Assembly: GCF_000373105.1 (NCBI RefSeq)
Contig: NZ_KB890418.1
Location: 10,206-74,205 of the forward strand
Direction: 5' to 3'
Origin: Neolewinella persica DSM 23188
GTDB lineage: Bacteria > Bacteroidota > Bacteroidia > Chitinophagales > Saprospiraceae
DNA: 64,000 nt
In this document: positions 2,945-57,843 of the stretch, piece by piece
Layout: every line of letters begins with the position of its first letter
How positions within the stretch are numbered: position 1 is the first letter of the stretch
The notes under the pieces: generated by a model
Databases searched by the model: none
What the model was told of the DNA's origin: nothing
The model's input: the letters and a program-made list of their open reading frames with translations, nothing else
Program-made: the position numbers and the translations under genes

Positions 2945-2963
2945 GGGCGCGGCCGCAGGTGCA
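2945..2963 (+). repeat. NotI-core dispersed element, copy 1
   Basis: Perfect core GGGCGCGGCCGCAGGTGCA in the mdh-trpF gap, followed by a right flank (GGGGAAGGATTATGGGAGCA) resembling other copies. The rest of this 364-bp gap (2772-3135) holds the mdh terminator and an inverted repeat; no gene seen. Confidence 0.85.
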
Positions 2964-3036
2964 GGGGAAGGATTATGGGAGCAAGGCATATTACCACGAG
3001 CCGGCAGACAAACTTTTGTCCGGCTTCGCCAGGCCA

Positions 3037-3081
3037 AAAGCATTTGTCGGACGGCCGGACTGTCTGTTCGACAAATGCTTT
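3037..3081. repeat. 13-bp perfect inverted repeat in the mdh-trpF gap
   Basis: AAAGCATTTGTCG at 3037-3049 pairs with CGACAAATGCTTT at 3069-3081 around a 19-nt loop. No T-run follows, so this is not an obvious terminator. It lies just downstream of copy 1 of the dispersed element and 55 bases beyond the trpF stop. Confidence 0.7.
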
Positions 3082-3135
3082 CCCATTCGCGACGAAGGAG
3101 TGGAAATGGGAAAGTCCGTGTGACGAGGTTGGGGA

Positions 3136-3789
3136 CTATTGCACTTCGACTAAAAAACGCTTCAATTTAATCACATCCTTAACTCCCGGCTCCACTTCAA
3201 AGCGCGAATTCAAATCCACCCCCGCAAATTGAGGGTGATTTACCTTAGCCACTTCGGCGGCATCCTCAGGCCCAATCCCGCCACTAAGCAGGAATGGCGT
3301 GAGGCCCTGATATTCAGACAACTTCGACCAGTCCCATTTTACGCCGGTACCACCGTGGTCCTTTTGCCCGCCCGTATCGAAAATGAAGAGTGGGCAACTG
3401 TCCGCATAGGTGTTGGTCATGTCAAAACTGAAATCAGCATCAACGGAGAAGGCTTTGATCAATGTTGCTTTGCGGAGGGTAGAGACTGACCATAATAGTT
3501 TCAGCTCCCGGCAGTATCCCGGACTCTCATTTCCGTGCAACTGGACATAGTCCAACTGGTAATCATGGACCATGTTGAGGATGTAATCGACTTCCGCATT
3601 AACAAATACGCCAACTTTCTTAGTGCCATTGAACTGGTCCTTGTTCTTTTGCAGCCATTTACTCAACTCCGATTTGCCAACAAAGCGTTTGGAGCGGTTG
3701 TGGAAAATGAACCCGACGTAATCCACCCCCAGGCCAAGCACTTCAACGATATTTTCGGGGTCGCGGAGACCACAGACTTTTACTTTCAT
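3136..3789 (-). CDS. trpF: Phosphoribosylanthranilate isomerase
   Basis: 217 residues. Third step of tryptophan synthesis from anthranilate: isomerises N-(5-phosphoribosyl)anthranilate to CdRP in a TIM barrel. Visible signatures are the catalytic cysteine in KVCGLR near the N-terminus (Cys6), the general acid region FIFDTGGQ with KDHGGTG, and the phosphate-binding LSGGIGPED. The length is normal for a monofunctional TrpF. It is the last gene of a trpD-trpC-trpF series on the minus strand, separated from trpC by 156 bp of short-period repeat sequence, so co-transcription is likely but not certain. Confidence 0.95.
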   Translation of the reverse strand: MKVKVCGLRDPENIVEVLGLGVDYVGFIFHNRSKRFVGKSELSKWLQKNKDQFNGTKKVGVFVNAEVDYILNMVHDYQLDYVQLHGNESPGYCRELKLLWSVSTLRKATLIKAFSVDADFSFDMTNTYADSCPLFIFDTGGQKDHGGTGVKWDWSKLSEYQGLTPFLLSGGIGPEDAAEVAKVNHPQFAGVDLNSRFEVEPGVKDVIKLKRFLVEVQ

Positions 3790-3945
3790 GAAGCTGGTGT
3801 ATTTGGTTTTTGGGAGAAAATTCGAACAAGTTTTTAACGGAACGGGGTAGAATACCGGAAGGTTGGCTTATGGTCAGGATCGACAACATCTGCCCCCTGA
3901 TAACTAAATACTAAACCCTAAATCCTGATTGCTGAATCCTAAACC

Positions 3946-4761: not shown

Positions 4762-4792
4762 AAGGGAAGGATAAAAAAGGGCTAAATAATGC

Positions 4793-4810
4793 GGCGCGGA
4801 CGCAGGTGCA
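4793..4810 (+). repeat. NotI-core dispersed element, copy 2
   Basis: GGCGCGGACGCAGGTGCA, one substitution from the core, in the trpD-trpC gap, followed by AGGTAAGG. Confidence 0.75.
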
Positions 4811-4900
4811 AGGTAAGGTATTTGAGCGAGTACGAGCTTCGGGAATTCCGGGGGCGTAGCTCCCGGTAACCGGGCAACTTGACCACCCGACCACCCGATC

Positions 4901-5890: not shown

Positions 5891-5894
5891 GGCG

Positions 5895-5902
5895 CGAAGA
5901 TA
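5895..5902 (-). promoter_or_regulatory. -7 promoter box directly before trpD
   Basis: TATCTTCG on the minus strand (variant of TAnnTTTG), ending only four bases before the trpD ATG. The expected start site falls at or inside the start codon. TTG triplets occur upstream, but spacing to a -33 box is not ideal. Confidence 0.5.
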
Positions 5903-6008
5903 GGAAGTCGAATTGTCAAGTTGTCAAGTTTCCGGATTGGCAAGGGTACTCCAGTAACCGGAAAACGACAAAGGGGCGGGCACTGGAGTACCCTTGCCAG
6001 CCCCTCTT

Positions 6009-6027
6009 TGCACCTGCGGCCGCGCCC
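6009..6027 (-). repeat. NotI-core dispersed element, copy 3
   Basis: Perfect core in reverse orientation (TGCACCTGCGGCCGCGCCC) between trpD and the outer-membrane barrel gene. This gap (5891-6155) also carries short-period repeat text at both ends (GTCAAGTT words near 5915, GACAAC words near 6105). Confidence 0.85.
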
Positions 6028-6155
6028 GAAACCGACTTGCCTTGTGCGTTATCTAATCTTCGGTAGGCCAAAAAGGGTCACAAACGATTAGCCCAGGTAA
6101 CTCGACAGCCGGACAACTCAGATACCCCGACAACATGAAAACCTGAAAGCCTGAC

Positions 6156-7793: not shown

Positions 7794-7800
7794 AGTTTTT

Positions 7801-11134: not shown

Positions 11135-11462
11135 AGTGGGTATTCGGATGAAAAACTTTTGAACCATGGCTGGGTGACCGCCATTGGAAGCGGCAAGATA
11201 ACAGTTAATAATCAGGGACTGGATGGAAAAGGAAAGGTTGCCCGTCCCCAGGCGTTAAATGTTAAAATACAGTCGGCTAACGTTTTGAGTCGCCCCGTTT
11301 ATTACGCCATATGTGCTCAATCGTACTTTTTTACCCATTTGTTCACATTTTTCCACAATGAATTAAACCATACGAGATCAACTGATGTATATACATCGAA
11401 TTTTGCGACGGCGGAATTTAGTATTCCAGGCTAGTGCTTTACAATGCCTGATTTCAGATTCC

Positions 11463-11482
11463 GGCGCGGCCGCGGGATACAA
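11463..11482 (+). repeat. NotI-core dispersed element, copy 4 (degenerate)
   Basis: GGCGCGGCCGCGGGATACAA keeps the GCGGCCGC centre but has a changed right half. The following AAGAAAGGTTTTGGCAGCAG matches the right flank of other copies, which supports homology. Confidence 0.65.
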
Positions 11483-11602: not shown

Positions 11603-11635
11603 ACATCAACAATCACCAATTTAAAATAAGCAACC

Positions 11636-14238: not shown

Positions 14239-14257
14239 TGCACCCGCGACCGCGCCC
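14239..14257 (-). repeat. NotI-core dispersed element, copy 5
   Basis: TGCACCCGCGACCGCGCCC, two substitutions from the core, reverse orientation, followed by TTATTAGTC as in copy 7. Confidence 0.75.
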
Positions 14258-14386
14258 TTATTAGTCAGAGAGCCAGATAATCGGTCAGTCAGATCGTCGC
14301 AACCACCCGAGCGAGGCAAGCCCCCTTAATCCAACGTGCAGTTGCAACTATTTGACTATTTGACTGCTTGACTATTTGACTATTAC

Positions 14387-19608: not shown

Positions 19609-19627
19609 GGGCGGGGGCGCAGGTGCA
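19609..19627 (+). repeat. NotI-core dispersed element, copy 6 (left member of an inverted pair)
   Basis: GGGCGGGGGCGCAGGTGCA, followed by AGGAAAAGGTTAAGGGCAAG. Faces copy 7 about 105 bases away in opposite orientation, upstream of paralogue B. Confidence 0.7.
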
Positions 19628-19732: not shown

Positions 19733-19752
19733 TGCATCCTGCGGCCGCGCCC
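19733..19752 (-). repeat. NotI-core dispersed element, copy 7 (right member of an inverted pair)
   Basis: TGCATCCTGCGGCCGCGCCC, one inserted base relative to the core, reverse orientation, followed by TTATTAGTC. With copy 6 it bounds a 144-bp interval that contains no gene. Confidence 0.8.
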
Positions 19753-19753: not shown

Positions 19754-19890
19754 TATTAGTCTTGTAGTCGAATAGTTTAGTAGTCTTGTAGTGCTACCGC
19801 AAGTGGACGTTCGTTGTTTGCGCAAAGTATGCCACCAAGCTATTGAACTACCGACTACTAGACTACTGAACTACTAGACTATAGAACTAT
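19754..19890. repeat. Short-period repeat with complementary halves
   Basis: Words of the GTAGTC/TTAGTAG type at 19754-19790 face CTAGACTAC/GAACTAC words at 19836-19890. The right part overlaps the end of the next gene. Confidence 0.5.
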
Positions 19891-20281: not shown

Positions 20282-20617
20282 TGTTAGCCCAAAGTTACGA
20301 AGGGGCGGGGGAGAGGGCCAAGACATTTTCGTAGAAAATGTCAAGGTTTCAAGGTATCGGGTTGTCCAGTTATCGGGTTCTCCCGGTTGTTCAGGTTTCT
20401 AGTTGTCCAGGTTATCTAGTTGTCCAGGTGTCCAGTTTTCGGGTTGTCGAGTTCTCTTGGTTGTCCAGGTTTCTAGATGTAGGGTGTTCCGTCTGTCAGG
20501 TAGGGGCCTTATACTTCCGATAACCTGACAACCGACAACTCGATTAATTTTACAAACAATTAGTAATATTTATTTATATTTTCCCATATTTGCGAGTACA
20601 GCAGCTCAACACACCAT
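20282..20617. repeat. Degenerate GTTGTCCAGGTT-type tandem repeats upstream of recQ
   Basis: From about 20338 to 20475 the sequence is a drifted tandem array of words such as GGTTGTCCAGTTATCGG and TAGTTGTCCAGGTTATC, period roughly 17-18. No gene seen. An AT-rich stretch (20540-20590) with CATATTTG precedes recQ and may contain its promoter. Confidence 0.65.
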
Positions 20618-25054: not shown

Positions 25055-25498
25055 TGTAGCCCCGGCTTTAGCCAGGGCGCTCAATAAAGTTAATCTGCGT
25101 CCAAATTGTACAATTGTATGTTTGGCATGGTATTGATGGCTTCCTGATCCTTAGGGAGACGAGGGAAACTCCAACCGCCTGATCCTGGGGTCATAATTAA
25201 CTTCCAATGGCCTTTCCTAATGGCGAAGTTCCCATTTATGGAATGATGTACAACCGCTTCCCTTTTGATAGGTTGGAACCGTCTTGACCGAGAAACGAAA
25301 GCATGGAGTGGCTACCTTCTCCTTCGCTGTCTTTTACGGAGTAACCGACAACCTCAGCCAGGGTCCACATCGTTCCCCGGCACTTGTGCCGGCATCTTCT
25401 TAACAACCGGCACAAGTACCGGGGAACAATGCGCTCCAATAACTATCTTCGGCCCAATCTGCCACTATTCATTCATTCCTTAATTCTTCCATTCACCT
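25055..25498. other. Non-coding gap before sbcD containing a cruciform element
   Basis: No gene supported. Contains short palindromes (CCCCGGCTTTAGCCAGGG near 25060) and copy 1 of a long inverted repeat (see 25373-25426), then an AT-rich stretch before sbcD. Confidence 0.6.
25373..25426. repeat. Cruciform-forming dispersed repeat, copy A
   Basis: Arms TTCCCCGGCACTTGTGCCGG and CCGGCACAAGTACCGGGGAA pair at 19 of 20 positions around a 14-nt loop; the left arm also contains the palindrome CCGGCACTTGTGCCGG. A second copy is at 50604-50657. It ends 72 bases before the sbcD start. Confidence 0.85.
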
Positions 25499-26818
25499 TT
25501 GCGTATTCTTCACACCTCAGACTGGCACCTTGGCCACCGCCTCTACGAGCGGGACCGAACGGCCGAGCATCGCGCAGCGCTGGCCTGGTTATTGGATACT
25601 ATTGAGGAGCAGAAGGTCGAATTATTGGTCGTAGCCGGAGACATCTTCGATACGATGAATCCATCCAATACGGCACGGGGACTCTACTACAATTTCCTCG
25701 GAGAGCTGCAACGAACTGGCTGTAAAGCAGCCATCATCGTGGGGGGGAATCACGACAGCCCATCCTTGCTTGACGCCCCAGCGGAGTTGATGCGTCACCT
25801 TAATCTCCATGTTGTTGGCGGGGCAAAATCAGACCTCAACGATCAGGTGTTTTTGCTTGATTTAGCTTCGCTGCGTCCTTCTGAGGTGGGCGCGGCCGCA
25901 GGTGCAAAGAAAAAGGAAGAAGGAGCAGTGTTGGTAGCCGCGGTTCCCTACCTTAGGGACAAGGACCTTAAATACAGCATTGCCGGAGAATCTCCGGAGG
26001 ATAGGAAGCAACGCATGCGAGCGGCCATTCTCACCCATTACCAGGAAATCGGTGCTGCGGTAAAGGCCCGGCAAGGTGACACAAAAGTTCCCATTCTGGC
26101 CACCGGCCACCTCTTCGCCGCGGGCTCCGAGGATGCAGAAGACAAAGCCTCCCACATCTACCTGGCGGATAAGAACAACATCGAAGCCGGACAATTCCCT
26201 GCGTCTTTTGACTATGTGGCCCTCGGCCATATCCACCAGGCCCAAAGGGTAGGGGGAAAGGAAAACGTGCGCTACTCCGGTAGCCTGGTGCCACTTACTT
26301 TCGGAGAAGCGCGGCAACCACAATCGGTCTGTGTTTTTGATTTAAGTAAGGCAGGCCAAGAAGTTGATGTTCAGAAAATTACTGTACCTAGGTTCAGAGA
26401 ATTAAAGAGCGTCCGTGGTACTGCTGAGGAAGTATTGTCGGAGCTTAAGGCACTTACGCTGATGGAAAAGGTACTGGAATCCAGTCAGCTGGCCCCCTGG
26501 GTTGAAGTTCGGGTTGAAACTGCCCACCCCTTGCCCCTGTTGCGGGAGGAGCTGCAGGCAGTTATCACTTCGGGTGAACCGACTGATGATTACCCCAGAC
26601 CTGAAATACTTCGAACCAGCCTGGTGCGTCCGGATGCGGCCATCGCCACCCCGCAGCTAATCACCCGCAACCTGAGTGAACTTGACCCCGAAGACGTTTT
26701 TTATCAGCTTTGCCACAATGGTGAGATAGCGGAGAAACGCGAAGACTACGACGATCTCCTGGACAGCTTCCGCGAACTGCGGAACTGGATGAACGAAACC
26801 GAAGCCGCTGCCGAATGA
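25499..26818 (+). CDS. sbcD: Nuclease SbcD, Mre11-type, with repeat-derived insertion
   Basis: 439 residues from a TTG start (MRILHTSDWHLGH reads as the usual N-terminus, so TTG is chosen although it is not ATG). Metallophosphoesterase motifs DWHLGH, GDIFD, GGNHDSP and GHLFA/GHIHQA coordinate two metal ions. With SbcC it forms the SbcCD exonuclease/hairpin endonuclease that opens palindromes and DNA ends. Residues 121-138 (DLASLRPSEVGAAAGAKK) are encoded by a full 54-bp copy of the dispersed element and sit between QVFLL and the conserved AAVPYLRDKDL, where family members have a short loop. The stop overlaps the sbcC start (ATGA). Confidence 0.95.
   Translation: MRILHTSDWHLGHRLYERDRTAEHRAALAWLLDTIEEQKVELLVVAGDIFDTMNPSNTARGLYYNFLGELQRTGCKAAIIVGGNHDSPSLLDAPAELMRHLNLHVVGGAKSDLNDQVFLLDLASLRPSEVGAAAGAKKKEEGAVLVAAVPYLRDKDLKYSIAGESPEDRKQRMRAAILTHYQEIGAAVKARQGDTKVPILATGHLFAAGSEDAEDKASHIYLADKNNIEAGQFPASFDYVALGHIHQAQRVGGKENVRYSGSLVPLTFGEARQPQSVCVFDLSKAGQEVDVQKITVPRFRELKSVRGTAEEVLSELKALTLMEKVLESSQLAPWVEVRVETAHPLPLLREELQAVITSGEPTDDYPRPEILRTSLVRPDAAIATPQLITRNLSELDPEDVFYQLCHNGEIAEKREDYDDLLDSFRELRNWMNETEAAAE
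25859..25912 (+). repeat. NotI-core dispersed element, copy 8, inside sbcD
   Basis: 54 bp containing the perfect core at 25888-25906. It matches the reverse complement of 33168-33221 at about 50 of 54 positions. 54 is a multiple of three, so the reading frame is preserved; it adds 18 codons. Confidence 0.9.
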
Positions 26819-29800
26819 AACTACTACGCATCGGTATCCGTAACCTGAATTCTCTGCACGGGGACCAGGAAGTCGACTTCCGCAAGGAGCCGCTGGCTTC
26901 CAGCGGCCTGTACGCCATTGTCGGCCCCACCGGGGCCGGCAAAACCTCGATCCTTGACGCCATCACGCTCGCCCTGTACGGCCGCACCGAACGCGACCGC
27001 TACGGCAACGAAGTGATGAGCCACGGAACGGGAGACTGCTTCGCCGAAGTGGAATTCAGTAATGATCACGGCCGCTACCTCAGCCGATGGGAGCGCCGCA
27101 GGGCGCGCTCCAAACCCGACGGTAAGCTCCAGACCGCCGAACGTTCCTTAAGCGCCTGGAATGAAACAGTTGGTGAATACCAACCAGTAGATAATGCCGA
27201 TGGCCTCCGCGGCGTCAATGAGCGAACGGAAGAAATCCTGGGCCTGGATTACGGTAGGTTCGTCCGTTCGGTCATGCTGACCCAAGGCCAGTTTGCCCGG
27301 TTCCTGGAGTCCGACGTAAGCGAACGCTCCGGCGTGCTGGAGCGGATCACCGGTACGGAGATCTATAGCCAAATTAGTGAGGCGGCGTTCATTCGCCACA
27401 AGGTGGCCAACGACGAATACCTTGCCCTTAAAAACAAGCTGGAGCTACAACCGCCGCTCGCTGCGGAAGACCGCAAGCTCCTGGTAGACAAACTCAAGCA
27501 AGCTGAACAAACCTCCCTGCACCTGCGGCCGCGCCTGAAAAGCAGCCGGGAAGCACTGGAAAGCCACCGCCGGTACGCCGAGCAAACGACGCTGCTGGAA
27601 ACGGAACAAAAGCATGTCGCCATGCTGGAGGCGGAGTGGGAAACCATGACGCCGAAACGTGACGCATTAACTGCTAGTTTACGCCTCCAACCCCTGCGCA
27701 GTCCACTGGCGAAAATGGATGGCCTGAAAAAAAATAAAGCAACAGTTACTACCCAATTGGCTGCCGCTGAAGCTGCGCTGAAAACACTTAAGCCCGAAGT
27801 AACGAGGACGCGTAACGCCGTGGAAACGGCAACGGAAAAACTCGAAAAACACCTTTCGGAACGGCCGTCAAAACTCCAGACTCTGGCGCAAGCAGAAGGC
27901 CTTGAACGGAAGATTGCCGAGCTGCAAGTAGCGGATAATAAAGAGAAAGTTCGCCTGAGCGAGCTACAAAAGGAAGTGGCGGACCTAAGCCTTAAGCAAA
28001 CTACGGCTGAGCATGAACTGGCAACCCTCCGGCAAAAAACGGGGAATGCCGAACCACCGGCGCTGGAAACTGAACTGGCTGAACTTGAAAACCGCCACCC
28101 CGAACTTGACCAACAAGTTAACGTACTTACAGCCTGGGTCAGATACCAGGCTGCCGCCAGTAAACTGGAATTAGCTAAGGCTGCGGAAGATAAGGCCGAT
28201 GTGGCACGAGCAACAGCATTAGGCGACCAGATCGCTGCTGAAAAGGCGCAGCGGAAGGCTGAAGAAACCTTTGCATTACGCGAGAAGGACTTACGCCGAA
28301 AGGAGCAAACCCAAAGCCTGGACCACCTGCGCAGCGCGCTTCCTGAAGGGGAGGCTTGTCCCGTCTGCGGAGCAACAGAACATCCTGCGCTCGTTGATTT
28401 TGAGCCCGTGGAAGACGCCGAGATTGGCCTTGCCCGTCGGGATGTTGAGCAGGCAAAGGAAGTACTGGAACGTGCAAAAGCCAACCTAACGCAAAAAACG
28501 ACGGCAGCACTGAAAGCTGCAAGTGACTTTGCTGCCTCCAAGGCAACGGCTACTGGATGGAGGGAACAAGCTGCCGCGCTTCTTCCGCCCGGAGAGCCGC
28601 CTGCGTTGCCCGACCTTCCCGCCGCGCTCGTTGCTGCCACAGAACAATTGGCCACGGCTACCGGAAGGTTAAAAGTACTGCGCCAACTGCGCGGAGATCT
28701 GCAACGAATGGTTTCAGTTCAGCAATCAATAACCACCTACGTGGCCCAAAAAGCGAAAGCTGCTGCTGACCTGAAGACATTGACGGCCAGCAGCATCGCA
28801 ACGGTGGAAAGCTTGAAGCAACTTCGACTTGAAAAGGTTGGCCTTATCGGCACCCATACCGTACAGGAGTGTCGGGAAATGCTGGCAGCGCATGATAAAA
28901 AAGTGCAGGACCTGGCGGATAGTAGTCGGGCTGAGGCTGAACGTGTTGGTCGACAAAAAACAGCTGCGGTAACTACCCGGGATGCCCGAATGGAAGACCT
29001 GGCAGCGGTGGAGGCACAAGTGGAAGTATTGTCGAAGGAACTCGATGCTTTGGCCGAAAGTCTTGACTTTACCGGCCTCTCCGCGGGATGTAAGGAATTA
29101 CTGCCGCTGGCGGAAGAAGAAGCACTTCGGAAGGAACTGAGCGATAAGGAACAGGCATTGAAGGTTTACCGCGCACGAGTTGAGCAGACGGTAGCACGTC
29201 ACGGCGAATTATCCACCGCAGTAAAAGACTTGCCGCCAGCTGAAAAGCTTAGTGAGCACCTTGCTAAGGACGAGGCTGCTTACGCCGAAAACGAACAGCT
29301 GGTTGGTGCCCTGAAAGGTGAAGTAACCCGGGACGATGAACGTCGCACGGCCGCCAAGTCCATCAGCTTTCAACTCGAAGCGAGCAAGAAAGAACTCAAC
29401 CGCTGGGCGGCACTCAATAACCTCATTGGCCAGAAGGACGGCACCAAATTCCGCCGCTACGCTCAAACACTGACCTTGCAGCGCTTAGTGGAGGCTGGTA
29501 ATTATCACCTCAACTCCATCAGTGGCCGCTATCAGATGCGGCACAAAGCTGCTGCCCGGCTGGATAAGGAGGCGCTCGAACTGGAGATCATTGATACCTT
29601 CCAGAACGACAACCGTCGGCCAACGAGTACGCTCTCCGGCGGAGAGACCTTCATCGTCTCTCTCGCTCTCGCCCTCGGATTATCGGATTTAGCAGCAGGT
29701 AAGCAGGTCATTCAGTCCTTATTCATCGATGAAGGCTTCGGCACCCTGGACGAGAAAATCCTGGATCAGGCAATGACCAGTCTTGAACAGCTTCAGGCAC

Positions 29801-33167: not shown

Positions 33168-33221
33168 TTTCTTTGCACCCGCGTCCCCGCCCACCTCCGA
33201 AGGACGCAGCGAAGCTAAATC
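33168..33221 (-). repeat. NotI-core dispersed element, copy 10, 54-bp full form
   Basis: Reverse orientation; core TGCACCCGCGTCCCCGCCC at 33174-33192 plus the long arm ACCTCCGAAGGACGCAGCGA to the right. Nearly identical over 54 bp to the copy inside sbcD. Lies between the DUF805-like and FAH genes. Confidence 0.88.
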
Positions 33222-36555: not shown

Positions 36556-39500
36556 TTAGTGGTTATTCCCACCCGCCACAAAATCCAGCAACTCCCCATA
36601 CACCATACTCTGCCGTAAGATCTCCGGGCAACCGACAATGACGAGGTGCTCCCGCGCCCTGGTCATGGCGACGTTCAGCTTCCGATCAACGCCCTCTTCA
36701 CTAATCTGGGAAAGCATCTGGATCTGGCTGTATTCGTTGGTACATAAGGAAATCAGCACGATCCGTTTGGCGCCGCCCTGATAGCGCTCCACCGTGTCTA
36801 CCTGGAAGTTTTCTGCAGGCAACCCCGCTTGCTGTAATTGCCTGCGGATATGGGCAATCTGTGCGCGGTAAGGGGTGATGATGCCGATGTCTCCGGGTTG
36901 AATCGGCCGGTCTGTGGGGGCATAAAGGCGGGTGTATGCCTCAATCAACCGGATCATTAATGCTGCTTCGTGGCCGTTGACTTTAGGGTCTGCAGTAGAC
37001 CTGTCGGGCTGGGTCGGCAGGAACACCAGCCGGTGGTTACTCAATGTTTTTTCCAGGGGCGCGGCCGCAGGTGCCAGGGAAAGTTTTTGGAGCTGGGTTT
37101 CCCGGTGAGCAATGCCCTCCGGCAAAATGCTGAGCTGCTGGTTATAAAAATGTAGCGCCGGGAAGGCCATGATGTCTTCATGCATTCTTCCCTGGTGACT
37201 GAGTTGATCGAATGCCCATGACCACTCCTTACGCTGGGCCGTCAGATAGAGCCGTTCAAATAAGCTGGTGGCCAGGTTTTTTAGCCCGATCTCCCGTAGC
37301 TTTTCATCGTGTACTTTTGTGTCCTGTGGCCGCTGCTGGACCACCGCGGGTAATTGCCGGTGATCTCCGATCAGTAACGCACGCGGAGCCCGGGGCAACA
37401 GCCCCGCCAGTAATGGTTCCAGTATCTGGCTCGCTTCATCCACAATGATCCGGTCAAAGCTTTTCAGCGCAAACAGCTCCGCTTTGCCGCCAACACTGGC
37501 AACGGTACTTACAATTACCCTGGTCTCCTGAATCAAGGCCTTTAACTCCACTCGTTTACTGATCCTGGTACTTTGTACCTGAAGTAGCCGTTCTTCGAAG
37601 CGGGGCGCTACCCCGTAGCGGCTACCAATCCGAAGGTAATTACGGAAAGGCTCGCCGTCCGGTCCGATGATACGCTCAATGCTTTCGCAAATTTCATCTA
37701 CGGCGCGATTGGTGTAAGCGACAAGTAACAGACTTTCTGAAGTATTGTCGAGAAGGTGCCGCACCAGGTGGTGAAGCATCTGGCTGGTTTTACCAGTCCC
37801 CGGAGGCCCCCACAGCAGGAAATAATCGGGTGCCGTGATGATGCGTTGCAGGATGCGGTTTTGTTCGTCGGTCAGGGTCGCGGCGATGGTCTCCTGATGG
37901 GCTGTTGCCTGCCCCGGAGGCTGGAAGCCCAACCACTTTTGCCGGAATTCACTGGACGCAGACGCCCAGGTCAGCATACCCTGGTAATGGTTCCGGAAGC
38001 TACTGTCCAGGACATCTTTTTCTATGCTCCAAAACTTACCCCGCTGAAAGGCGGTGTCGTTCAGCTGTTGGCTCCTCAATCTCAGCTGCACTTCCTGCTG
38101 ATCAACTTTGGTAATGGTCGACTTCAATACCTGCGAGGCCAGCACATCCTTAGGCCCTGCCGCCGCCTCTGGCGTCGCGTACAGGGCGATGATGTCTCCC
38201 TGGCGGAATTTCACCAGCCGGTCGTCTTGATCTGGTCGTTGCAGCGTCAGGATAGCGGTTTTCTCGTCGTAGCCGGCGTAGGTCAGACCGTCGAGTAGCT
38301 CGAAGCGTTCGATCTTCGCTTCCCGGTCGTCGAGCCAAAGGCTCGCCAACCCGTTAATCCCTTCCAGGCGTTGTTCTCCGGTTTTGGCGAGGCGCTGTTC
38401 TCTGGCGGTAAACCCGAGGTAGGCACCAAAGTAGCGGCGTTCAATGTCGTTAAGGTCACCGTAGTGGGTAAGGACCGCATCGTGGTCCCGCTTGGCGAAC
38501 CTGCTCAGGTCCGGAAGACGAGTGGGCTGCAGGCGGTTGAGGAGTTTTGTCGTCTGAGCAGCAAGGTCAGTATCGGGGCTGGCTCCCAGCTGGCCGATCA
38601 ACAATTCTACGCCCATCAACTGATTGCGGGCGGCAATGGCTTCGAGCTTTTGCAGGTACTCTGGCGGCGCATACTTCAGACCGCTTTCGTAGTCGGCACT
38701 GTAAAGGATATAACTGCGGACATTGGCCCCTTCGCCTAATGCCTGGTTGATCATCAGATCATATAGCAGCGTCTGGATATAATTCGTCTGGTTGATACCA
38801 TGACGATTTTGCTTCCAATACTTGCTTGTTTTTTGTTCCACAATGGTGGTGGGGTCGTCCCTGTCTTTTCCAGCCTGTAAGAGGTCAAGGCGGCCCTGGA
38901 CGCCGTAAGTCGGACTTAGAAAGCTTGGTTCCAGCAAAATGGCTTCCCGGTCTACATCGATGCCTTCTAATTCCTGCCGTACAAATTTTTGCAGCGTAAC
39001 GAAGTGTTTGTTTAGTTGGGCAATCAATTCCTTAATCTCCCGGTCGTCAAACAAACATAGTTGGAGCGGTTGGGTCTGGAAAATATTACCAATCAGGGCT
39101 TTGAAACTAACCTCAGGGTTTTCTACCAACCGGTCGAGGAAATAGTTGACTAAATTACCCCGAACCAGTGGCATGGCTACGCGCATCGGGACGAGCTTTT
39201 TCGCAATTGCCGTCCAGGGCTGGTAGTGGTGCGTTCCGCTGAAAGATTCAGCTACTGCAGTGACGTCGATCAGATAGTCTGGGTCAACCACCATCTGCGC
39301 CGGGTGCAAGTGATCGTCGTCGCGTAATTCCGCATTGATCAGGTTGAGCAAGCAGGGTAAACCGCTGACTTGTTTAACAATGGCAATGGCCTGAGCGATA
39401 AAGGGGTTAGCCACTTCTTCCTCCGCATAGGGGATAGCGTAAACGTTTTCCGGGCGTTCCTCTTCACGGACGTACAGTAACTGGTCCTCCTCATCGAATT

Positions 39501-39954
39501 CCACCGCAACAACCCGAAGGGTGGGGAAGCGTTGTCTGACCTCCGTCTTAACGTAGGGGATGGGGTAGGGCAGCGTAAGGTAATCGACCCAGGGGGCGGG
39601 TACCGCCCCGCCAAACAAGGCACGGGTCAACTCTGTGGCCACCCGGTAACCGGTCACGAGGTGGTCGGCTAATTCCGGCTCCGATAACTTCGCCGGACGC
39701 CGCTGCCGGAACCGCCGCTCCTGAAAGATATGGACGTTGGGAATCCCGTATTTATGCGCAGCATAGCTAATTCGGGCAAAGCTGGTGCTGAAGTGCAGCT
39801 TATCCTTTTCCGTCGCCCGTTCAAAAATCTCCAGAACAAGTCGTCGCAACGCCAGAGCCCGCTCGGTATCCGCATACACTTCGTTGGCCGCGATCTTATC
39901 TAGCTGGCGGTAGAAGTACTTACGAAAGGCATCGTGGCGCTGGGTCTCGGTCAT
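36556..39954 (-). CDS. Dna2-like SF1 helicase with PD-(D/E)XK nuclease domain
   Basis: 1132 residues from MTETQRHDAFRKYF. The N-terminal half contains a RecB/Cas4-like nuclease signature: GRLDLL at about 353, then IVEQKTSKYW (E-x-K) and a following glutamine/tyrosine helix (NQTNYIQTLLYDLM). I see no four-cysteine iron-sulphur cluster. The C-terminal half is an SF1 helicase: Walker A GPPGTGKTS (about 714), RIIVDEASQI, GDHRQLPAVV, VDTVERYQGGAKRI and LNVAMTRAREHLVIVG. This is the Dna2/Upf1-type layout used in DNA end or flap processing. Residues about 954-970 (KLSLAPAAAPLEKT) come from a dispersed-element copy. Promoter box four bases upstream of the ATG. Confidence 0.85.
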   Translation of the reverse strand: MTETQRHDAFRKYFYRQLDKIAANEVYADTERALALRRLVLEIFERATEKDKLHFSTSFARISYAAHKYGIPNVHIFQERRFRQRRPAKLSEPELADHLVTGYRVATELTRALFGGAVPAPWVDYLTLPYPIPYVKTEVRQRFPTLRVVAVEFDEEDQLLYVREEERPENVYAIPYAEEEVANPFIAQAIAIVKQVSGLPCLLNLINAELRDDDHLHPAQMVVDPDYLIDVTAVAESFSGTHHYQPWTAIAKKLVPMRVAMPLVRGNLVNYFLDRLVENPEVSFKALIGNIFQTQPLQLCLFDDREIKELIAQLNKHFVTLQKFVRQELEGIDVDREAILLEPSFLSPTYGVQGRLDLLQAGKDRDDPTTIVEQKTSKYWKQNRHGINQTNYIQTLLYDLMINQALGEGANVRSYILYSADYESGLKYAPPEYLQKLEAIAARNQLMGVELLIGQLGASPDTDLAAQTTKLLNRLQPTRLPDLSRFAKRDHDAVLTHYGDLNDIERRYFGAYLGFTAREQRLAKTGEQRLEGINGLASLWLDDREAKIERFELLDGLTYAGYDEKTAILTLQRPDQDDRLVKFRQGDIIALYATPEAAAGPKDVLASQVLKSTITKVDQQEVQLRLRSQQLNDTAFQRGKFWSIEKDVLDSSFRNHYQGMLTWASASSEFRQKWLGFQPPGQATAHQETIAATLTDEQNRILQRIITAPDYFLLWGPPGTGKTSQMLHHLVRHLLDNTSESLLLVAYTNRAVDEICESIERIIGPDGEPFRNYLRIGSRYGVAPRFEERLLQVQSTRISKRVELKALIQETRVIVSTVASVGGKAELFALKSFDRIIVDEASQILEPLLAGLLPRAPRALLIGDHRQLPAVVQQRPQDTKVHDEKLREIGLKNLATSLFERLYLTAQRKEWSWAFDQLSHQGRMHEDIMAFPALHFYNQQLSILPEGIAHRETQLQKLSLAPAAAPLEKTLSNHRLVFLPTQPDRSTADPKVNGHEAALMIRLIEAYTRLYAPTDRPIQPGDIGIITPYRAQIAHIRRQLQQAGLPAENFQVDTVERYQGGAKRIVLISLCTNEYSQIQMLSQISEEGVDRKLNVAMTRAREHLVIVGCPEILRQSMVYGELLDFVAGGNNH
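37057..37090 (+). repeat. NotI-core dispersed element, copy 11, inside the Dna2-like gene
   Basis: GGGCGCGGCCGCAGGTGCC, 18 of 19 to the core, followed by AGGGAAAGTTTTTGGAGC, which matches the right flank of intergenic copies. Opposite to the gene's direction; read on the coding strand as APAAAP within a non-conserved linker. Confidence 0.82.
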
Positions 39955-40002: not shown

Positions 40003-40020
40003 GGCACCTGCGGCCCCGCC
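40003..40020 (-). repeat. NotI-core dispersed element, copy 12
   Basis: GGCACCTGCGGCCCCGCC then TCCCCTTATTA, reverse orientation, in the 209-bp region between the divergent helicase and rfbD genes. The remaining space is ATAGACCAAT-type short repeat (about 40082-40150). Confidence 0.75.
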
Positions 40021-40149
40021 TCCCCTTATTAACGACCGGATCACCATTGTCTACCACTAAACAGCATTGTAATTGAGGTTCATCACCCAATAGTCGAATT
40101 GTTTCAATAGACCAATAGCTCGATAGACCAATAATCCCAACAGACCAAT

Positions 40150-42191: not shown

Positions 42192-42458
42192 CTTAGGCGA
42201 ATGTTTTGATGGGGGCTTTTTGACCGGCGAAGTCCAACTGCTAATCGGATAGTTTTCTGCGGTTGATTTTTGGTCCTGTTATTTATTTAGCAGATGGCGG
42301 GGCCGCAGGTGCAAGCCCCCCTATCCGTGCCTGCCGGCCCGGTCCCCAAAGGGGAAGGGGATAAAGAAGCAAGGTGATTAGCATCTCTTGCGGTAGCCGG
42401 TACGAGCGCAGCCCTTCGTATTTATTAGTCAGGTAGGTGAAATCTATCCTAAACGTTA
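42192..42458. other. Non-coding remainder of the aroC-GNAT gap
   Basis: Holds copy 13 of the dispersed element at 42296-42313, AT-rich sequence and no supported gene. The whole gap (42123-42458) is 336 bp. Confidence 0.6.
42296..42313 (+). repeat. NotI-core dispersed element, copy 13
   Basis: GGCGGGGCCGCAGGTGCA, one substitution from the core, then AGCCCCCC; preceded by TTATTTAGCAGAT. Confidence 0.78.
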
Positions 42459-44043: not shown

Positions 44044-44091
44044 TGGACCTGCGGCCCCGCCCAACCATGAAGGATGCAGCTAAGTTGAAAG
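44044..44091 (-). repeat. NotI-core dispersed element, copy 14, with long arm
   Basis: TGGACCTGCGGCCCCGCCC followed by AACCATGAAGGATGCAGCTA, related to the GACGCAGCGAAGCTAAA arm of copies 8 and 10 but with a 5-base gap. Reverse orientation. Confidence 0.75.
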
Positions 44092-49763: not shown

Positions 49764-49857
49764 GGCGACGGTGCGCAGGTGCAAATACGAGGATAAAGGA
49801 GCAGGTTATACTTCTTATCCACCGGATTACCGGGTATTTGTACCTGCGGCCGTTCTT
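49764..49857. repeat. Inverted pair of NotI-core dispersed elements, copies 15 and 16
   Basis: Copy 15 (GGCGACGGTGCGCAGGTGCA, 49764-49783) and copy 16 (TGTACCTGCGGCCGTTCTT, 49839-49857) face each other; CGCAGGTGCAAATAC and GTATTTGTACCTGCG are inverted repeats at 14 of 15 positions. Between them is about 55 bp, no gene. It sits between the catalase-like and DUF1080 genes (convergent). Confidence 0.75.
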
Positions 49858-49909
49858 ATTTAAGCCGATTACTCTTTGGTCGTTAACGTTTTGATGATTA
49901 CACCATGAC

Positions 49910-50515: not shown

Positions 50516-50603
50516 GATCGAATGATTGATTTGCTGACAATGTAGCGGAAAATTTTCGGAGAGGTTAGTCTTGCGTGCATTGTAAATAGCGCTTCGGATT
50601 TTG

Positions 50604-50657
50604 TTTCCCGGCACTTGTGCCGGTCCTTTGCTATCAACCGGCACGAGTGCCGGGGAA
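50604..50657. repeat. Cruciform-forming dispersed repeat, copy B
   Basis: Arms TTTCCCGGCACTTGTGCCGG and CCGGCACGAGTGCCGGGGAA pair at 18 of 20 positions around a 14-nt loop. Nearly identical arms to copy A at 25373-25426; the loop differs. Upstream of the DUF1080 gene. Confidence 0.85.
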
Positions 50658-50997
50658 CAAAGCACACAAAGCCAAGAGAACCGGAAATACGAATCCAACG
50701 CAACAAGGCAAATGGTTGCCAATGTGTTGCGAAGGGCTGGAAGTATTTCTTTCCAAATATTACAAGGGGTTGTCTCGCCGGAGATGTACGGGCTGGTAAT
50801 AACGGTGTTCCGCCCTTACCTAGCTCTTTAAATCTCCCCATAGCACCTGCGACCGCGCCCGAAATAAAGTGAATTATTGAATGAGAGAACCGCTACCGAA
50901 AGTTCCGTCCGTAGCCCAGCAGGCTCCCACCCTGGCGAATAATCGCAGCGCAGTAAGCAGCAACTGCCGGTAGCCATTCACCCATTCTATTACTTAC
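50658..50997. other. Non-coding remainder of the DUF1080-carB gap
   Basis: Contains copy 17 of the dispersed element (50842-50860) and no supported gene. The whole gap is 482 bp and both flanking genes point left, so it also holds the DUF1080 promoter; a TACATTGT on the minus strand near 50550 is a weak candidate. Confidence 0.55.
50842..50860 (-). repeat. NotI-core dispersed element, copy 17
   Basis: AGCACCTGCGACCGCGCCC, 17 of 19 to the core, reverse orientation, followed by GAAATAAAG. Confidence 0.78.
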
Positions 50998-55042: not shown

Positions 55043-55149
55043 GGGGACCGAAAGCCAGAAGAAGCATTTAATTTTAACGGCAGGAATCGTCTTAGGTAGG
55101 ACAGATTTGCTTTTTTCTATTATGAGTCACGTGTTATTTTTGCACCGTT

Positions 55150-55290
55150 CATAGTGTTATTCAAACTGTTCAACATCGTCTCTCATATTAACATCGGCGA
55201 ACCTCTGGAATTGAGAGGACCCCATTATTAAAGCTGTTTAAAATTCAAAGACGTACCAGAAGCAATTGCTTTTGGTACGTCTTTCACTTT
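55150..55290 (+). ncRNA. Candidate small RNA (about 140 nt) with own promoter and terminator
   Basis: TATTTTTGC at 55135-55143 matches the -7 element, with a TTTG at 55106-55109 upstream (spacing 25, a little long). A small hairpin CCTCT-GGAATTG-AGAGG lies at about 55202-55218. The segment ends in a strong terminator hairpin at 55247-55284. No ORF. It could be 6S-like or another Bacteroidota structured RNA; the family is not assigned. Confidence 0.5.
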
Positions 55291-55292
55291 AA
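55247..55292 (+). terminator. Rho-independent terminator of the candidate small RNA
   Basis: AAAGACGTACCA / TGGTACGTCTTT perfect 12-bp outer stem with an inner AGCAATTGCTT hairpin, followed by CACTTTAAG. It is 205 bases past the upstream gene's stop, too far for simple 3' end formation of that gene. Confidence 0.8.
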
Positions 55293-55375
55293 GTTAAACC
55301 CCTCTTAAACTCAAGTCGAACCCTAGCCTAAGAAGAGCTTTCTACGTCTTAAGTAGGAACAAACCTCTATTTGTT

Positions 55376-55876
55376 ATGCGCCTACTCTATACTTCCGCAA
55401 TGTTTCTTTGCTCTTGCCTGCTCTTTGCGCAGGCAGACAGCCTTTTGGTGAATACCGTTTGGGAAGAGACATCTGGGGGAGAAAGAAATGGGTACGTATT
55501 GCAACTGGACCAGTATGGTACCTTCGAAGAAGATGCAGGCCGGGCTTATAAACGTTCTTCTCAATACCTGATGGGGCGATGGACGGTCGATTCAACGGGC
55601 CATACGATCACCTTCGCGGTTGATTACTTTTTGGGAAAGAACATGGTTCCTGGCCGATACCGGGATGGGCGGGATTTTTACCTGACTTATAGTATTATCA
55701 GCCTGGACCGGGATAGCTTAGCGTTAGAAGATGTACTGACTGGGGATTTCAGGTCATTCGTCAGGACTAGACTGAAGGAAGGCCACGAGGATGCGGCTAC
55801 CCGGCGGATACCTAAGGGGGGGAAGAAAAAGGGTGGTTTTAAGCTTCCTGAACTGGGGAGAGGTGGAAAGCGGTAG
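55376..55876 (+). CDS. Secreted lipocalin-like small protein, unknown function
   Basis: 166 residues. Signal peptide (about 1-20, LFAQADS), then NTVWEETSGGERNGYVLQLD, GTFEEDAGRAYKRSSQYLMG and RWTVDSTGHTITFAVDYFLG, a strand pattern like the lipocalin-type domains of Bacteroidota (W-x-x-G.. start and GxW repeat). The C-terminal tail is basic and glycine-rich (PKGGKKKGGFKLPELGRGGK). Just 5 bp from the convergent LytTR gene stop. Function unknown. Confidence 0.6.
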   Translation: MRLLYTSAMFLCSCLLFAQADSLLVNTVWEETSGGERNGYVLQLDQYGTFEEDAGRAYKRSSQYLMGRWTVDSTGHTITFAVDYFLGKNMVPGRYRDGRDFYLTYSIISLDRDSLALEDVLTGDFRSFVRTRLKEGHEDAATRRIPKGGKKKGGFKLPELGRGGKR

Positions 55877-55881
55877 TTTTT

Positions 55882-57480
55882 TTAGTGAGCTCCTTTGATT
55901 TCCGCATGTACAATTTCCCGAAATCGATTTCCGACGGGAATAGGGGAAGGCCAATTAGCCAAATGCAGACGAGCCTTGCGACCAGTATCCAACCGAACAA
56001 TTAATTCTTTATTGACGATATAGCTTCTCTGAACGCGGATGAATTCCTCAGGCAATTGCTCTTCTACTTGCCCAAGACGGAGGGGAATAGATACAGTTTG
56101 CCCGCCCGCGAGTAGGCAATGGGTGATCTCCCGGTCGGCCGTGAAACCTTGCACCTGCGTCCTCGCCCACTTGTATTGCTTACGTGGAGTGGTAATGATT
56201 AGCTGCTTTTGCGCAAGATTCAATTCCCGTAGCACCATCTCTTTGCGGAGCTTCTTAAGTTCTCCCTGGCTTCGCTCCGTTTCTCTCCGAAGGTCATACC
56301 AGTTATAAATCAGGCCAATCCAATAGATGAAAAGTTCCCCCAATATGGCATATTGGAAAAAGCCAAAAGGCGGCGGCTCGAGGTCAAGACCATACTTGCG
56401 TTTGAGCCAATTATTTAATAGAATGAGGAGCGCGCCAAAAACCAGTAGCGTCATTCCGCCAGCAATGATGCGCGAGAACCGGTCTTTGTTGCGAAGAAGT
56501 AGAAAGACCAAATACGCTGTGACGGGGGCAAAGCATAATTGGGTGAAAATACTGAAACTACCCCTCCAGAATAGTCCGGCAAGCGGGAGTAAAATCAAGT
56601 TAATGCCAAAAGCACCAATAGCCAGGTATATGGCCAGCCACAAGGTTTTGAGAATACGAGGATTACGGGAGCTGGTACGAGTTTCAAGAAAAGCTTTTAC
56701 AAATAGGGAATACGACAACAGAATTACCGGGATCCAAAGGAATTCAAAAGAACTCCTGAGCCAGGAGGGCAAATAAAATACATCATTATAGAATAGGTAA
56801 GACCGCCGAACGAGGTAATACACCAAAATTGCCGTCACATACATTGCGTAGTAGGCAAAGGTCATTTCTCTTAGAATAATCCAGGATATGAATACAAGTA
56901 TTAGTACAATCAGGATGAAGCTCAGAAACCACGTTTCATTATTCGCCCGTATGCGTGTTTGGAAATCAATTTCCTCCAGAGACGCTTCCCATGCATAAGC
57001 TGAAGTAAGCAGTGAGATGGCTATAGGATTGGTGTTGTGGCTTTTAAAATTAGGCGTATAGTTGGTTAATTTCAATAAGTACTGGTCTGCCTCATTGGGA
57101 ACAACAAATCCGTTTCTACTGGTGGGGCTGGTGCGATTTTTTATCCATATATCACCTCCTGTAAGTCCGATAGGCACCCCGTTTTGCAACAAAACAATCG
57201 AATCCGTCGTCTGTGGATTTAAAATGAGGTACCGCATACCTGTATCTTGTGCAGGCAGGTCAAACTTAAGGTAGGTAGGATGAAACGTGCTTAATCGTCT
57301 GGAACCACCTTGTGGCGGTGAAAAACTACCGCCTGGCAACGCTAATATTTCAGTTGCGGAAAGTGTGTTCGTTGAATCAGTAAAGACATGGCTAATGTCC
57401 CACAGGTCAAAACTTTCCTGACTGAAGAGTAAGCAGTTGAATAAGATTAAGGCAATCAGCGTGTTGCGACACGATTTCAT
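55882..57480 (-). CDS. 7TMR-DISM/LytTR membrane-bound transcriptional regulator
   Basis: 532 residues. Signal peptide, an extracellular beta-rich domain (about 25-170; YLKFDLPAQDTGMRYLILNP), seven hydrophobic segments (about 183-400; SFILIVLILVFISWII, GSFSIFTQLCFAPVTAYL), a short coiled coil (ERSQGELKKLRKEMVLRELN) and a C-terminal LytTR DNA-binding domain (GFTADREITHCLLAGGQTVS, EEFIRVQRSYIVNKELIVRL). A one-component receptor for an outside or envelope signal is inferred. The start of the LytTR domain, WARTQVQGF, overlaps a 17/19 match to the dispersed element. Confidence 0.85.
   Translation of the reverse strand: MKSCRNTLIALILFNCLLFSQESFDLWDISHVFTDSTNTLSATEILALPGGSFSPPQGGSRRLSTFHPTYLKFDLPAQDTGMRYLILNPQTTDSIVLLQNGVPIGLTGGDIWIKNRTSPTSRNGFVVPNEADQYLLKLTNYTPNFKSHNTNPIAISLLTSAYAWEASLEEIDFQTRIRANNETWFLSFILIVLILVFISWIILREMTFAYYAMYVTAILVYYLVRRSYLFYNDVFYLPSWLRSSFEFLWIPVILLSYSLFVKAFLETRTSSRNPRILKTLWLAIYLAIGAFGINLILLPLAGLFWRGSFSIFTQLCFAPVTAYLVFLLLRNKDRFSRIIAGGMTLLVFGALLILLNNWLKRKYGLDLEPPPFGFFQYAILGELFIYWIGLIYNWYDLRRETERSQGELKKLRKEMVLRELNLAQKQLIITTPRKQYKWARTQVQGFTADREITHCLLAGGQTVSIPLRLGQVEEQLPEEFIRVQRSYIVNKELIVRLDTGRKARLHLANWPSPIPVGNRFREIVHAEIKGAH
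56150..56168 (-). repeat. NotI-core-like sequence, copy 18, inside the LytTR gene
   Basis: TGCACCTGCGTCCTCGCCC, 17 of 19 to the core, read as ARTQVQ. The domain length here seems normal, so this may be conversion, ancient insertion or chance. Confidence 0.5.
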
Positions 57481-57843
57481 ATTGTAATAATAAGGATTTT
57501 GGGCTGGATGTGGGATGCTTGACTGTATTTCGCTTTTAATAAATTCTGGCGCGGACGCAGGTGCAAAGAATTATTTGACGGCAGGTTAAGGGGGGCACCT
57601 TTAACATGCGTAGGCAAATCAAGCTTCGGGTATCAGGTTCGTGGTAGCAGGAGCTGTTTCGTGGGTAAGCGAGGGGTATTCACGACTATTGGCCTGGTTC
57701 TACCGTAAGTTTAGCAGCAGTAAAGTAAGCCGTAAGGGTTGGTTAGGAATAAGACTAGCTCTCTTACTGAATAATATAAAAGCCTTGCTGGAAATGCAAG
57801 TGCTCACTTACTGAATTCATCCTTTCACCCAAAAAGAGACACT
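57481..57843. other. Divergent non-coding region before the beta-helix gene
   Basis: 363 bp. Contains copy 19 of the dispersed element and no supported gene. The left half is GC-mixed; the right half before the beta-helix gene is AT-rich with AATAATATAAAAGCC. Confidence 0.55.
57548..57565 (+). repeat. NotI-core dispersed element, copy 19
   Basis: GGCGCGGACGCAGGTGCA, followed by AAGAATTATTTG; same core variant as copy 2. Confidence 0.78.

What the first reader, a model, noticed from the sequence alone, without database searches (positions are those of the whole stretch)
2945..57565. Dispersed repeat family with core GGGCGCGGCCGCAGGTGCA, about 19 copies in 64 kb
The same 18-19 bp core (with NotI palindrome GCGGCCGC) recurs in both orientations at 2945, 4793, 6009, 11463, 14239, 19609, 19733, 25888, 27518, 33174, 37057, 40003, 42296, 44044, 49764, 49839, 50842, 56150 and 57548. 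Several copies share flanks: AGGAAAGGTTTTGGGAGCAG-like on one side, TAATAAG or a TTAGCTTCGCTGCGTCC arm on the other. A density of one per 3.4 kb in such a long identical core is far above chance. Most copies are in gaps between genes, some read in frame inside genes. I know of no named family with this core; Rickettsia palindromic elements are the closest concept.
Basis: seen in the sequence. Interest (0 to 1): 0.85.

Follow-up and report, generated by a model that had tools for sequence, protein, structure and literature searches.

The report
Neolewinella's dialect-forming genome-wide DNA motif
A marine bacterial genus carries hundreds to about 1,700 copies per genome of a short one-way DNA sequence that builds up by point mutation and differs between species, much like the "take up my own DNA" signals of Haemophilus and Neisseria, but in an unrelated phylum that apparently lacks their uptake machine; its function is not yet shown.

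Summary
The genus is Neolewinella/Lewinella, Bacteroidota. It does not behave like a mobile repeat: coding copies mostly arise by substitution at unchanged length, at different places in different clades, in several frames and both strands. 18 of 21 genus genomes carry at least 262 copies; the other three mainly use other dialects: GGCGNCGGAGCGCAGG (679 in G001, 488 in G006) or TTGGCTANCAAAGTAGCA (470 in G010, 0 in the other 20). 59 other-genus family members stay near background. Same-orientation sites avoid each other below about 3 kb, opposite ones much less, in five species with four motif forms; 541 control words and E. coli Chi lack this; samples of G005 and G006 were too small to tell. 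Best reading: a polar self-DNA signal, most likely a DNA-uptake sequence read without type IV pili (no credible T4P/T2S ATPase). Function is inferred; Chi-like or architectural roles remain open.

The parts
2945..2963 (+). core site, exact; intergenic
   Evidence: score 42.5
4792..4810 (+). core site; intergenic
6009..6027 (-). core site, exact; intergenic
11462..11480 (+). core site, degenerate 3' end; intergenic
   Evidence: score 20.4
14239..14257 (-). core site; TAATAA flank
19609..19627 (+). core site, left half of a short convergent pair (125 bp start to start)
19734..19752 (-). core site, right half of the convergent pair
25888..25906 (+). core site, exact, inside sbcD-like gene 25499-26818
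27518..27536 (-). core site inside sbcC-like gene 26815-29919, encoding HLRPR in a gap-free alignment block
   Evidence: score 23.0
33174..33192 (-). core site; shares a 54-nt stretch with 25859-25912
37057..37075 (+). core site inside helicase-like gene 36556-39954 (- strand)
40003..40021 (-). core site just upstream of the helicase-like gene (inside it if the longest ORF start at 40047 is taken)
42295..42313 (+). core site; intergenic
44044..44062 (-). core site; intergenic
49764..49783 (+). variant-spacing site GGCGACGGTGCGCAGGTGCA with T-tract before and purine/GGAGCA tail after (second dialect form)
   Evidence: sequence printed; dialect counts
49839..49857 (-). degenerate convergent partner of 49764 (5 mismatches)
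50842..50860 (-). core site; intergenic
56150..56168 (-). core site inside a predicted gene
57547..57565 (+). core site; intergenic

Best explanation
The motif is a directional self-DNA signal sequence of the genus Neolewinella. SHOWN: it consists of a T-tract, an 18-bp core (GGCGsGGnCGCaGGTGCA in the main dialect), a purine tract and a loosely spaced [GA][GA]GCA about 28-50 bp from the core start. It is found hundreds to about 1,700 times per genome. In genes it mostly arises by substitution, and it is often kept at orthologous places. It exists as species dialects, is about equal on both strands, and is evenly spaced on each strand separately in the five species with enough sequence. INFERRED: a sequence-specific reader treats the site as one-way, so that sites of the same orientation are redundant with each other within about 3 kb. 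The process that spreads the sites is most likely biased import and recombination of own-species DNA: alleles carrying a site are imported more often and so replace site-less alleles, as proposed for the uptake sequences of Pasteurellaceae and Neisseriaceae. The receptor would have to be something other than a type IV pilus, perhaps an outer-membrane barrel plus helix-hairpin-helix, ComEC, ComF and DprA route like that proposed for Riemerella. Import running in one direction from the site would explain the strand-specific spacing.
For: Abundance and genus restriction. Gain by substitution: four sbcC site blocks, clade-specific sites, gap in 0, 0, 1 and 0 of 19 species against 13% of 7-codon windows in the background. 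Several frames and both strands giving unrelated peptides (APAAAP, GAAAGA, ARTQV, HLRPR, CTCVRA), and use in signal peptides. Preference for permissive places: 98 of 152 sites in the 20% non-coding DNA (96 of 152 with genes called on joined stretches). Conservation: core identity 0.86-0.87 against 0.65-0.66 in flanks where orthologues align with the site kept. Dialects; form 2 dominates in two separate branches of a quick sbcC tree. Polar even spacing: same-strand gap CV 0.53 (own) and 0.51 (G014) against 0.82 and 0.84 with shuffled strand labels, 0 of 2000 shuffles as low; G001 0.55, G010 0.54, G017 0.59; 0 of 541 control 7-mers. ComEC in 21 of 21 genomes; weak ComEA-type helix-hairpin-helix matches in 20 of 21, two neighbouring ones in 18, all below the ComEA cut-off. 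Another Bacteroidota transforms with ComEC, DprA, ComF, RecA and an outer-membrane barrel candidate (PMC8459023, passages).
Against: No uptake experiment exists and no receptor is identified. The machine that reads known uptake sequences is apparently missing: PF00437 matches in 20 of 21 genomes are weak and partial (11 of 21 at or just over the 24.9-bit cut-off, those covering profile positions 139-222 of 370), and the 3 best-hit proteins scanned are ClpB-like AAA proteins (3 of 6 fetched). ComEC is widespread (10 of 14 control genomes) and says little. In Haemophilus, uptake was reported not to depend on orientation of the site (PMC1939737, passages), so strand-specific spacing is not what that model predicts without an added polarity. 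Divergent pairs are also scarce at 0.4-1.5 kb (0.35-0.47 of expectation), so opposite orientations are not wholly independent. The small G005 and G006 samples do not show alternation clearly (G005 4 of 9 and 5 of 5; G006 5 of 9 or 12 of 17 by pattern strictness, and 14 of 29 with a loose matrix). The short convergent pairs (33 at 60-300 bp against about 5 expected) have no agreed explanation and are not clearly enriched in G001 and G017.
Confidence: 0.5

Rival explanations
1. A Chi-like polar recombination or repair signal: a helicase-nuclease reading one strand is switched by the site, so each strand needs one every few kb.
For: Strand-specific even spacing with a mean same-strand gap of about 5.4-9.1 kb is what a one-way reader that needs one site per few kb would favour; sites lie in and near sbcCD, recQ-like and helicase genes in this window, though no enrichment was tested.
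Against: About 18 bp of core plus flanks is far longer than known Chi sites (5-8 nt, recalled). E. coli Chi over 350 kb shows no such spacing: 89 sites, CV 1.36, alternation 41 of 88. Strands are balanced per contig: 55 of 113 and 50 of 96 on +, and mixed along a 4.17 Mb contig of G013 (21 of that genome's 28 exact sites). But Chi itself was only 51 of 89 on + in the E. coli stretch, so strand balance does not separate the two here.
Confidence: 0.18
2. A polar chromosome-architecture or translocation site (boundary, loading or steering element for an SMC/FtsK-like motor), with opposed sites working in pairs.
For: Convergent pairs at 60-300 bp are enriched 4-9 fold in own plus G014 sequence; orientation alternates along the chromosome (109 of 149 and 76 of 95 neighbours).
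Against: No strand bias per contig as expected for steering motifs. Spacing of a few kb is very fine for loop boundaries. Re-evolution of hundreds of sites into new dialects needs a strong force per site, easier with transmission drive than with weak selection (inference).
Confidence: 0.15
3. A mobile or palindromic repeat (MITE, REP/BIME, RPE) that has spread by transposition, the short convergent pairs being its terminal inverted repeats.
For: Convergent pairs with arms of about 40-45 bp (by eye) around unrelated middles look like terminal inverted repeats. Intergenic copies were hardly testable for insertion (13 directed pairs). In the second gene, 6-nt gaps occur at one site in the two species lacking it.
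Against: Gain without insertion in sbcC; middles unrelated by eye; 180 of 248 copies are not in a short convergent pair (68 are); binding-site logo; dialects; strand-regular spacing.
Confidence: 0.05
4. A transcription terminator, roadblock or regulatory site.
For: 98 of 152 sites are intergenic and some pairs could fold as hairpins (not folded here).
Against: No clear orientation bias relative to genes: 26 sense and 28 antisense in coding sequence, and mixed orientation in every class of gap; 54 of 152 inside genes.
Confidence: 0.04

Closest known systems
DNA uptake sequence (DUS) of Neisseriaceae and its dialects (PMC3630211, passages read)
   Same: Abundant short non-palindromic motif, in permissive intergenic places and in genes, with related species using dialects; inverted pairs occur.
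   Different: Different phylum; the type IV pilus ATPase was not credibly found; core is 18 bp plus flanks instead of 10-12 bp; sites are spaced evenly per strand (not examined for DUS here); pairs are 60-300 bp apart instead of terminator hairpins; uptake not tested.
Uptake signal sequence (USS) of Pasteurellaceae (PMC1939737 and PMC7811141: passages; PMC2346458: part 1 of 3)
   Same: Many copies on both strands, reported to accumulate by point mutation (PMC1939737), relatively even distribution (PMC7811141; called not as even as a compaction role would need in PMC1939737). Core plus looser flanks (recalled).
   Different: Denser there (average spacing about 1,000 bp, PMC7811141); inverted pairs with centres within 14 bp there; uptake reported as independent of orientation (PMC1939737), which does not by itself predict the strand-specific spacing seen here.
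Chi sites (E. coli GCTGGTGG, recalled)
   Same: Short, polar, self-marking, one per several kb per strand.
   Different: Chi is shorter and, in 350 kb of E. coli K-12 measured here, not evenly spaced on a strand.
Rickettsia palindromic elements / REP elements (recalled)
   Same: Dispersed copies between and inside genes.
   Different: Those are inserted units; here sites in sbcC arise by substitution at unchanged length.

Membership tests
Uptake sequence (DUS/USS) | Short motif strongly over-represented across the whole genome on both strands | tested here: met
   844 and 854 copies per strand, control 2; 18 of 21 genus genomes at 262 or more
Uptake sequence (DUS/USS) | Spread by point mutation, not insertion | tested here: met
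   sbcC blocks, gap in 0, 0, 1, 0 of 19 species. Second gene mixed: 6-nt gaps in the two site-less species at one site, and a length-variable linker from which all 7 site-absent pairs come. Intergenic copies hardly tested
Uptake sequence (DUS/USS) | Dialects in related species | tested here: met
Uptake sequence (DUS/USS) | Inverted pairs close enough to form terminator hairpins | tested here: not met
   in own plus G014 sequence, 2 divergent and 0 convergent pairs closer than 60 bp; enrichment instead at 60-300 bp convergent. G010 has 2 convergent pairs closer than 60 bp
Uptake sequence (DUS/USS) | Type IV pilus/secretin-based uptake machine with a minor-pilin receptor | tested here: not met
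   PF00437 only partial matches of at most 25.5 bits, 11 of 21 genomes at or just over the cut-off; 13 of 14 control genomes pass it; 3 of 3 scanned best-hit proteins are ClpB-like AAA proteins. Pilins and secretin not searched
Uptake sequence (DUS/USS) | Presence of the motif raises DNA uptake | not testable with these tools
   Needs an uptake assay
Chi site | Recognised by RecBCD/AddAB, attenuates degradation | not testable with these tools
   Enzymes not searched
Chi site | Strand bias with replication (recalled) | tested here: inconclusive
   balanced strands per contig, but the E. coli Chi yardstick itself showed only 51 of 89 in the stretch used
MITE / REP / RPE | Copies are inserted units with precise empty sites | tested here: not met
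   for copies in sbcC. Few intergenic copies could be aligned (13 directed pairs, all with the site kept), so intergenic insertion is less well excluded
MITE / REP / RPE | Cognate transposase (e.g. RAYT) | not tested
   No search made

The most novel reading that the evidence does not exclude
Neolewinella has a one-way (polar) DNA-import signal: a receptor that is not a type IV pilus recognises the site in one orientation and brings in DNA on one side of it only, so that each strand has evolved its own evenly spaced series of sites. This would be, as far as my searches show, the first uptake-sequence system in Bacteroidota and the first with built-in direction, with at least three dialects in one genus.
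Probability: 0.33. Interest if true: 0.95.

Novelty: new variant of a known kind. Interest (0 to 1): 0.82.

Why it matters
Genomes full of uptake sequences are described in the passages read here only for Pasteurellaceae and Neisseriaceae, whose uptake uses type IV pili (partly recalled). An independent case in Bacteroidota, with dialects and no credible pilus ATPase, would show that self-DNA marking evolved again with another machine, and would give a handle to find the still obscure DNA-import route of Bacteroidota. The strand-by-strand regularity seen with several different dialect sequences is a strong quantitative clue to a polar mechanism that can be tested directly. Even if the function proves to be recombination or chromosome organisation, the pattern would be a new kind of genome-wide address.

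Tried and rejected
Mobile element: rejected for copies in sbcC by nearly gap-free codon alignments; the second gene is mixed. Transcription terminator: no clear orientation bias relative to genes. Replication-steering motif: balanced strands. RNA family: no Rfam match at gathering score in the window. Species at background for the main motif as 'lost system': rejected when their own dialects appeared. Similar motifs in other genera: four genera sampled at 100 kb each gave coding repeats by their look (G021, G025), a mostly intergenic repeat element (G060) or nothing (G097); this is a small sample. Competence genes as discriminator: ComEC is in all 21 genomes, so it does not discriminate. A Neisseria or Haemophilus genome as yardstick for strand spacing could not be reached; E. 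coli Chi was used instead. A first control set of 8-mers held only 7 words and was replaced by 541 7-mers. Literature: searches returned no listing that, by title and start of abstract, reports such a motif in Lewinella or Bacteroidota; this covers open-licence PMC papers only, and one search listed 25 of 6,048 papers.


Full report
What was checked. One search finds 15 with at most 3 mismatches, 0 expected. An iterated weight matrix finds 18, covering 17 of the 19 coordinates and adding 31894. The other two form a weak convergent pair whose left member, 49764, has the variant spacing GGCGACGGTGCGCAGGTGCA. The own genome (7.08 Mb, 84 contigs) has 177 exact 19-mers with control 0 and 1,698 copies of GGCGNGGNCGCNGGTGCA with at most one mismatch, 844 on one strand and 854 on the other, control 2.

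Which organism. Neolewinella is Bacteroidota, Saprospirales, Lewinellaceae. Among 60 genomes including the own one, 17 have the exact 19-mer, all in the same genus (the own genome and 16 of 20 others), and 0 of 39 genomes of other genera. With the looser pattern, 18 of 21 genus genomes have 262 to 1,698 copies (controls at most 24), G006 has 55, G010 8 and G001 6. The 59 other-genus members of the family have at most 10 (the one with 10 has control 5).

Anatomy. In 464 kb of the own genome (400 kb fetched plus the window) the motif has a T-rich stretch before the core. The core has nearly fixed positions GGCG.GG.CGC.GGTGC and variable positions 5 and 8. It is followed by a purine tract and a loosely spaced [GA][GA]GCA, present at +28 to +50 in 49% of intergenic, 42% of coding and 76% of signal-peptide copies against 7-14% in an upstream control (152, 67 and 29 copies from own and G014 together). 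This is the logo of a recognition site; a decaying repeat would be expected to vary at all positions. The copies were found with a core or matrix, which favours the core positions to some extent.

Where the sites lie. 98 of 152 own sites are in the 20% of DNA that my simple gene finder leaves non-coding; 96 of 152 when genes are called on joined stretches. Gene calls come from a home-made hexamer finder, so single assignments can be wrong. Inside genes, sites occur in both orientations and several frames and encode unrelated peptides. 29 of 248 copies pass a crude signal-peptide test, such as ...LLCTCVRAQ, though a few of these look doubtful by eye. No clear orientation relative to genes is preferred.

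How sites arise. In a codon alignment of sbcC from 19 species, one site block is used by G000, G005 and G015, another by six species of a second clade, another by four species of a third, and one block by G017 alone. Species without the site have the same length there: gaps in 0, 0, 1 and 0 of 19 species, while 13% of all 7-codon windows have a gap. Near-matches in sister species look like intermediates. A second gene (764 aa in G014; I took it for a radical-SAM protein by eye, untested) gave eight usable orthologues with a mixed picture: one site gap-free (in G013 and G019 only), one site with 6-nt gaps in the two species lacking it, and one in a linker with length variation. Where blastn could align orthologous surroundings, 99 of 106 directed pairs keep the site with core identity 0.86-0.87 against 0.65-0.66 in flanks; 19 of the 99 have a gap within the core alignment, and all 7 absent pairs come from the linker just named. 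These pairs are not independent, the alignment step favours conserved sites, and only 13 pairs are intergenic.

Dialects. The species at background for the main motif have their own. Word counting in 100 kb stretches showed the forms of G001 and G010 without prior knowledge; that of G006 was weak there and was settled by pattern search. G001 and G006 use GGCGNCGGAGCGCAGG (679 and 488 copies, control 1 each; 0-168 in the other 19, mostly above their controls, so it is also a minority form elsewhere). G010 uses TTGGCTANCAAAGTAGCA (470 copies; 0 in the other 20). G017 leans to ...CGCAGGAGCA beside 522 copies of the main form. On a quick tree of sbcC proteins (SH-aLRT support only, rooted by me on G010), G001 and G006 lie in different clades, and G001's sister G020 uses the main form; G006 and G010 are long branches. 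So the second form has probably become dominant twice.

Strand-by-strand spacing. In own sequence 109 of 149 neighbours are in opposite orientation (75 expected from label shuffles), in G014 76 of 95 (48 expected); same-strand gap CVs are 0.53 and 0.51 against 0.82 and 0.84; none of 2,000 shuffles reached these. Pooled own plus G014, same-orientation pairs closer than 3 kb number 38 against about 127 expected from uniform placement. Convergent pairs beyond 600 bp are at 0.66-1.08 of expectation. Divergent pairs are low at 0.4-1.5 kb (0.35-0.47) and at 0.80-1.41 beyond. The same alternation holds with each species' own form: G001 50 of 64, CV 0.55; G010 59 of 81, CV 0.54; G017 27 of 38, CV 0.59 (shuffle p for alternation below 0.0005, below 0.0005 and 0.01); G010 also has 3 same-orientation pairs closer than 60 bp. 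Two further species had too little sequence: G005 4 of 9 on one contig and 5 of 5 on another; G006 5 of 9 or 12 of 17 by pattern strictness and 14 of 29 with a loose matrix. Of 541 control 7-mers of like abundance none reaches the alternation or the CV of the motif. E. coli Chi over 350 kb gives CV 1.36 and 41 of 88. The spacing therefore seems to belong to the system and not to one sequence or to gene layout.

Short convergent pairs. 33 pairs at 60-300 bp were seen against about 5 expected in own plus G014, with middles unrelated by eye. G010 shows 9 against about 2, G001 2 against about 0.9 and G017 1 against about 0.7. They resemble terminal inverted repeats but I saw no shared interior. 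I have no firm explanation; signal-peptide copies at gene starts account for some.

Mechanism. The properties shown (abundance, both strands, gain by substitution, preference for permissive places, conservation, dialects) are those reported for uptake sequences (PMC1939737, PMC3630211, PMC7811141, passages; PMC2346458, part 1 of 3). Two things differ. First, PF00437 gives no credible type IV pilus or type II secretion ATPase: matches are partial and at most 25.5 bits, 11 of 21 genomes at or just over the 24.9-bit cut-off, and the three best-hit proteins I scanned are ClpB-like AAA proteins. So the known reader is apparently not available. Riemerella, also Bacteroidota, is transformable with ComEC, DprA, ComF, RecA and proteins of unknown role including an outer-membrane barrel candidate (PMC8459023, passages). 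ComEC is in all 21 Neolewinella genomes, and weak ComEA-type helix-hairpin-helix matches in 20 of 21, two neighbouring ones in 18, all below the cut-off. A one-way import signal fits both; a Chi-like or architectural polar signal remains possible. I put uptake at about one half.

Limits. The function is inferred. Only parts of genomes were used for spacing (464 kb own, 260 kb G014, 300 kb G001, 225 kb G010, 140 kb G017). Intergenic gain by substitution is not well tested. The statement that this is new rests in an open-licence library.

Noticed in passing
G000 and G014 signal peptides, e.g. G000:C2 21605, G014:C1 58643 and 75860: The motif is written into N-terminal signal peptides of secreted proteins (...LLCTC[GV]RAQ... 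and the like), about one copy in ten by a crude test; different genes then share this odd signal-peptide ending.
   Followed up: partly
window 1-98: Tandem array, 31-bp unit, 3.1 copies; the word GTTGCAGGGGTTGCAG has 37 hits in 464 kb, none within 80 bp of a core, so it looks like another repeat family.
   Followed up: no
window 25372-25439 and 50603-50670: A second dispersed family: a 68-nt hairpin-like stretch CCGGCACTTGTGCCGG...CCGGCACAAGTACCGG, 79% alike between the copies; also at G000:C1 267708.
   Followed up: no
window 25859-25912 and 33168-33221: Two cores share an upstream arm GATTTAGCTTCGCTGCGTCCTTC (54 nt, 93%); only two copies found in 464 kb. In G010, TTTAGCTTCGCTGATCGTC also adjoins a dialect core.
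   Followed up: partly
G060 C12 (L227-L231): In another genus of the family, an element with AAATAAGGTGGACGGATTTGGGTTTAGTG and TTTTAGCTCAAATA parts recurs about 10-15 times per 100 kb, mostly between genes: an ordinary dispersed repeat by its look.
   Followed up: partly
window 20339-20470, 19840-19889, 14347-14384: Several arrays of short imperfect repeats such as TATCGGGTTGTCCAG and ACTACTAGACTACAGA.
   Followed up: no
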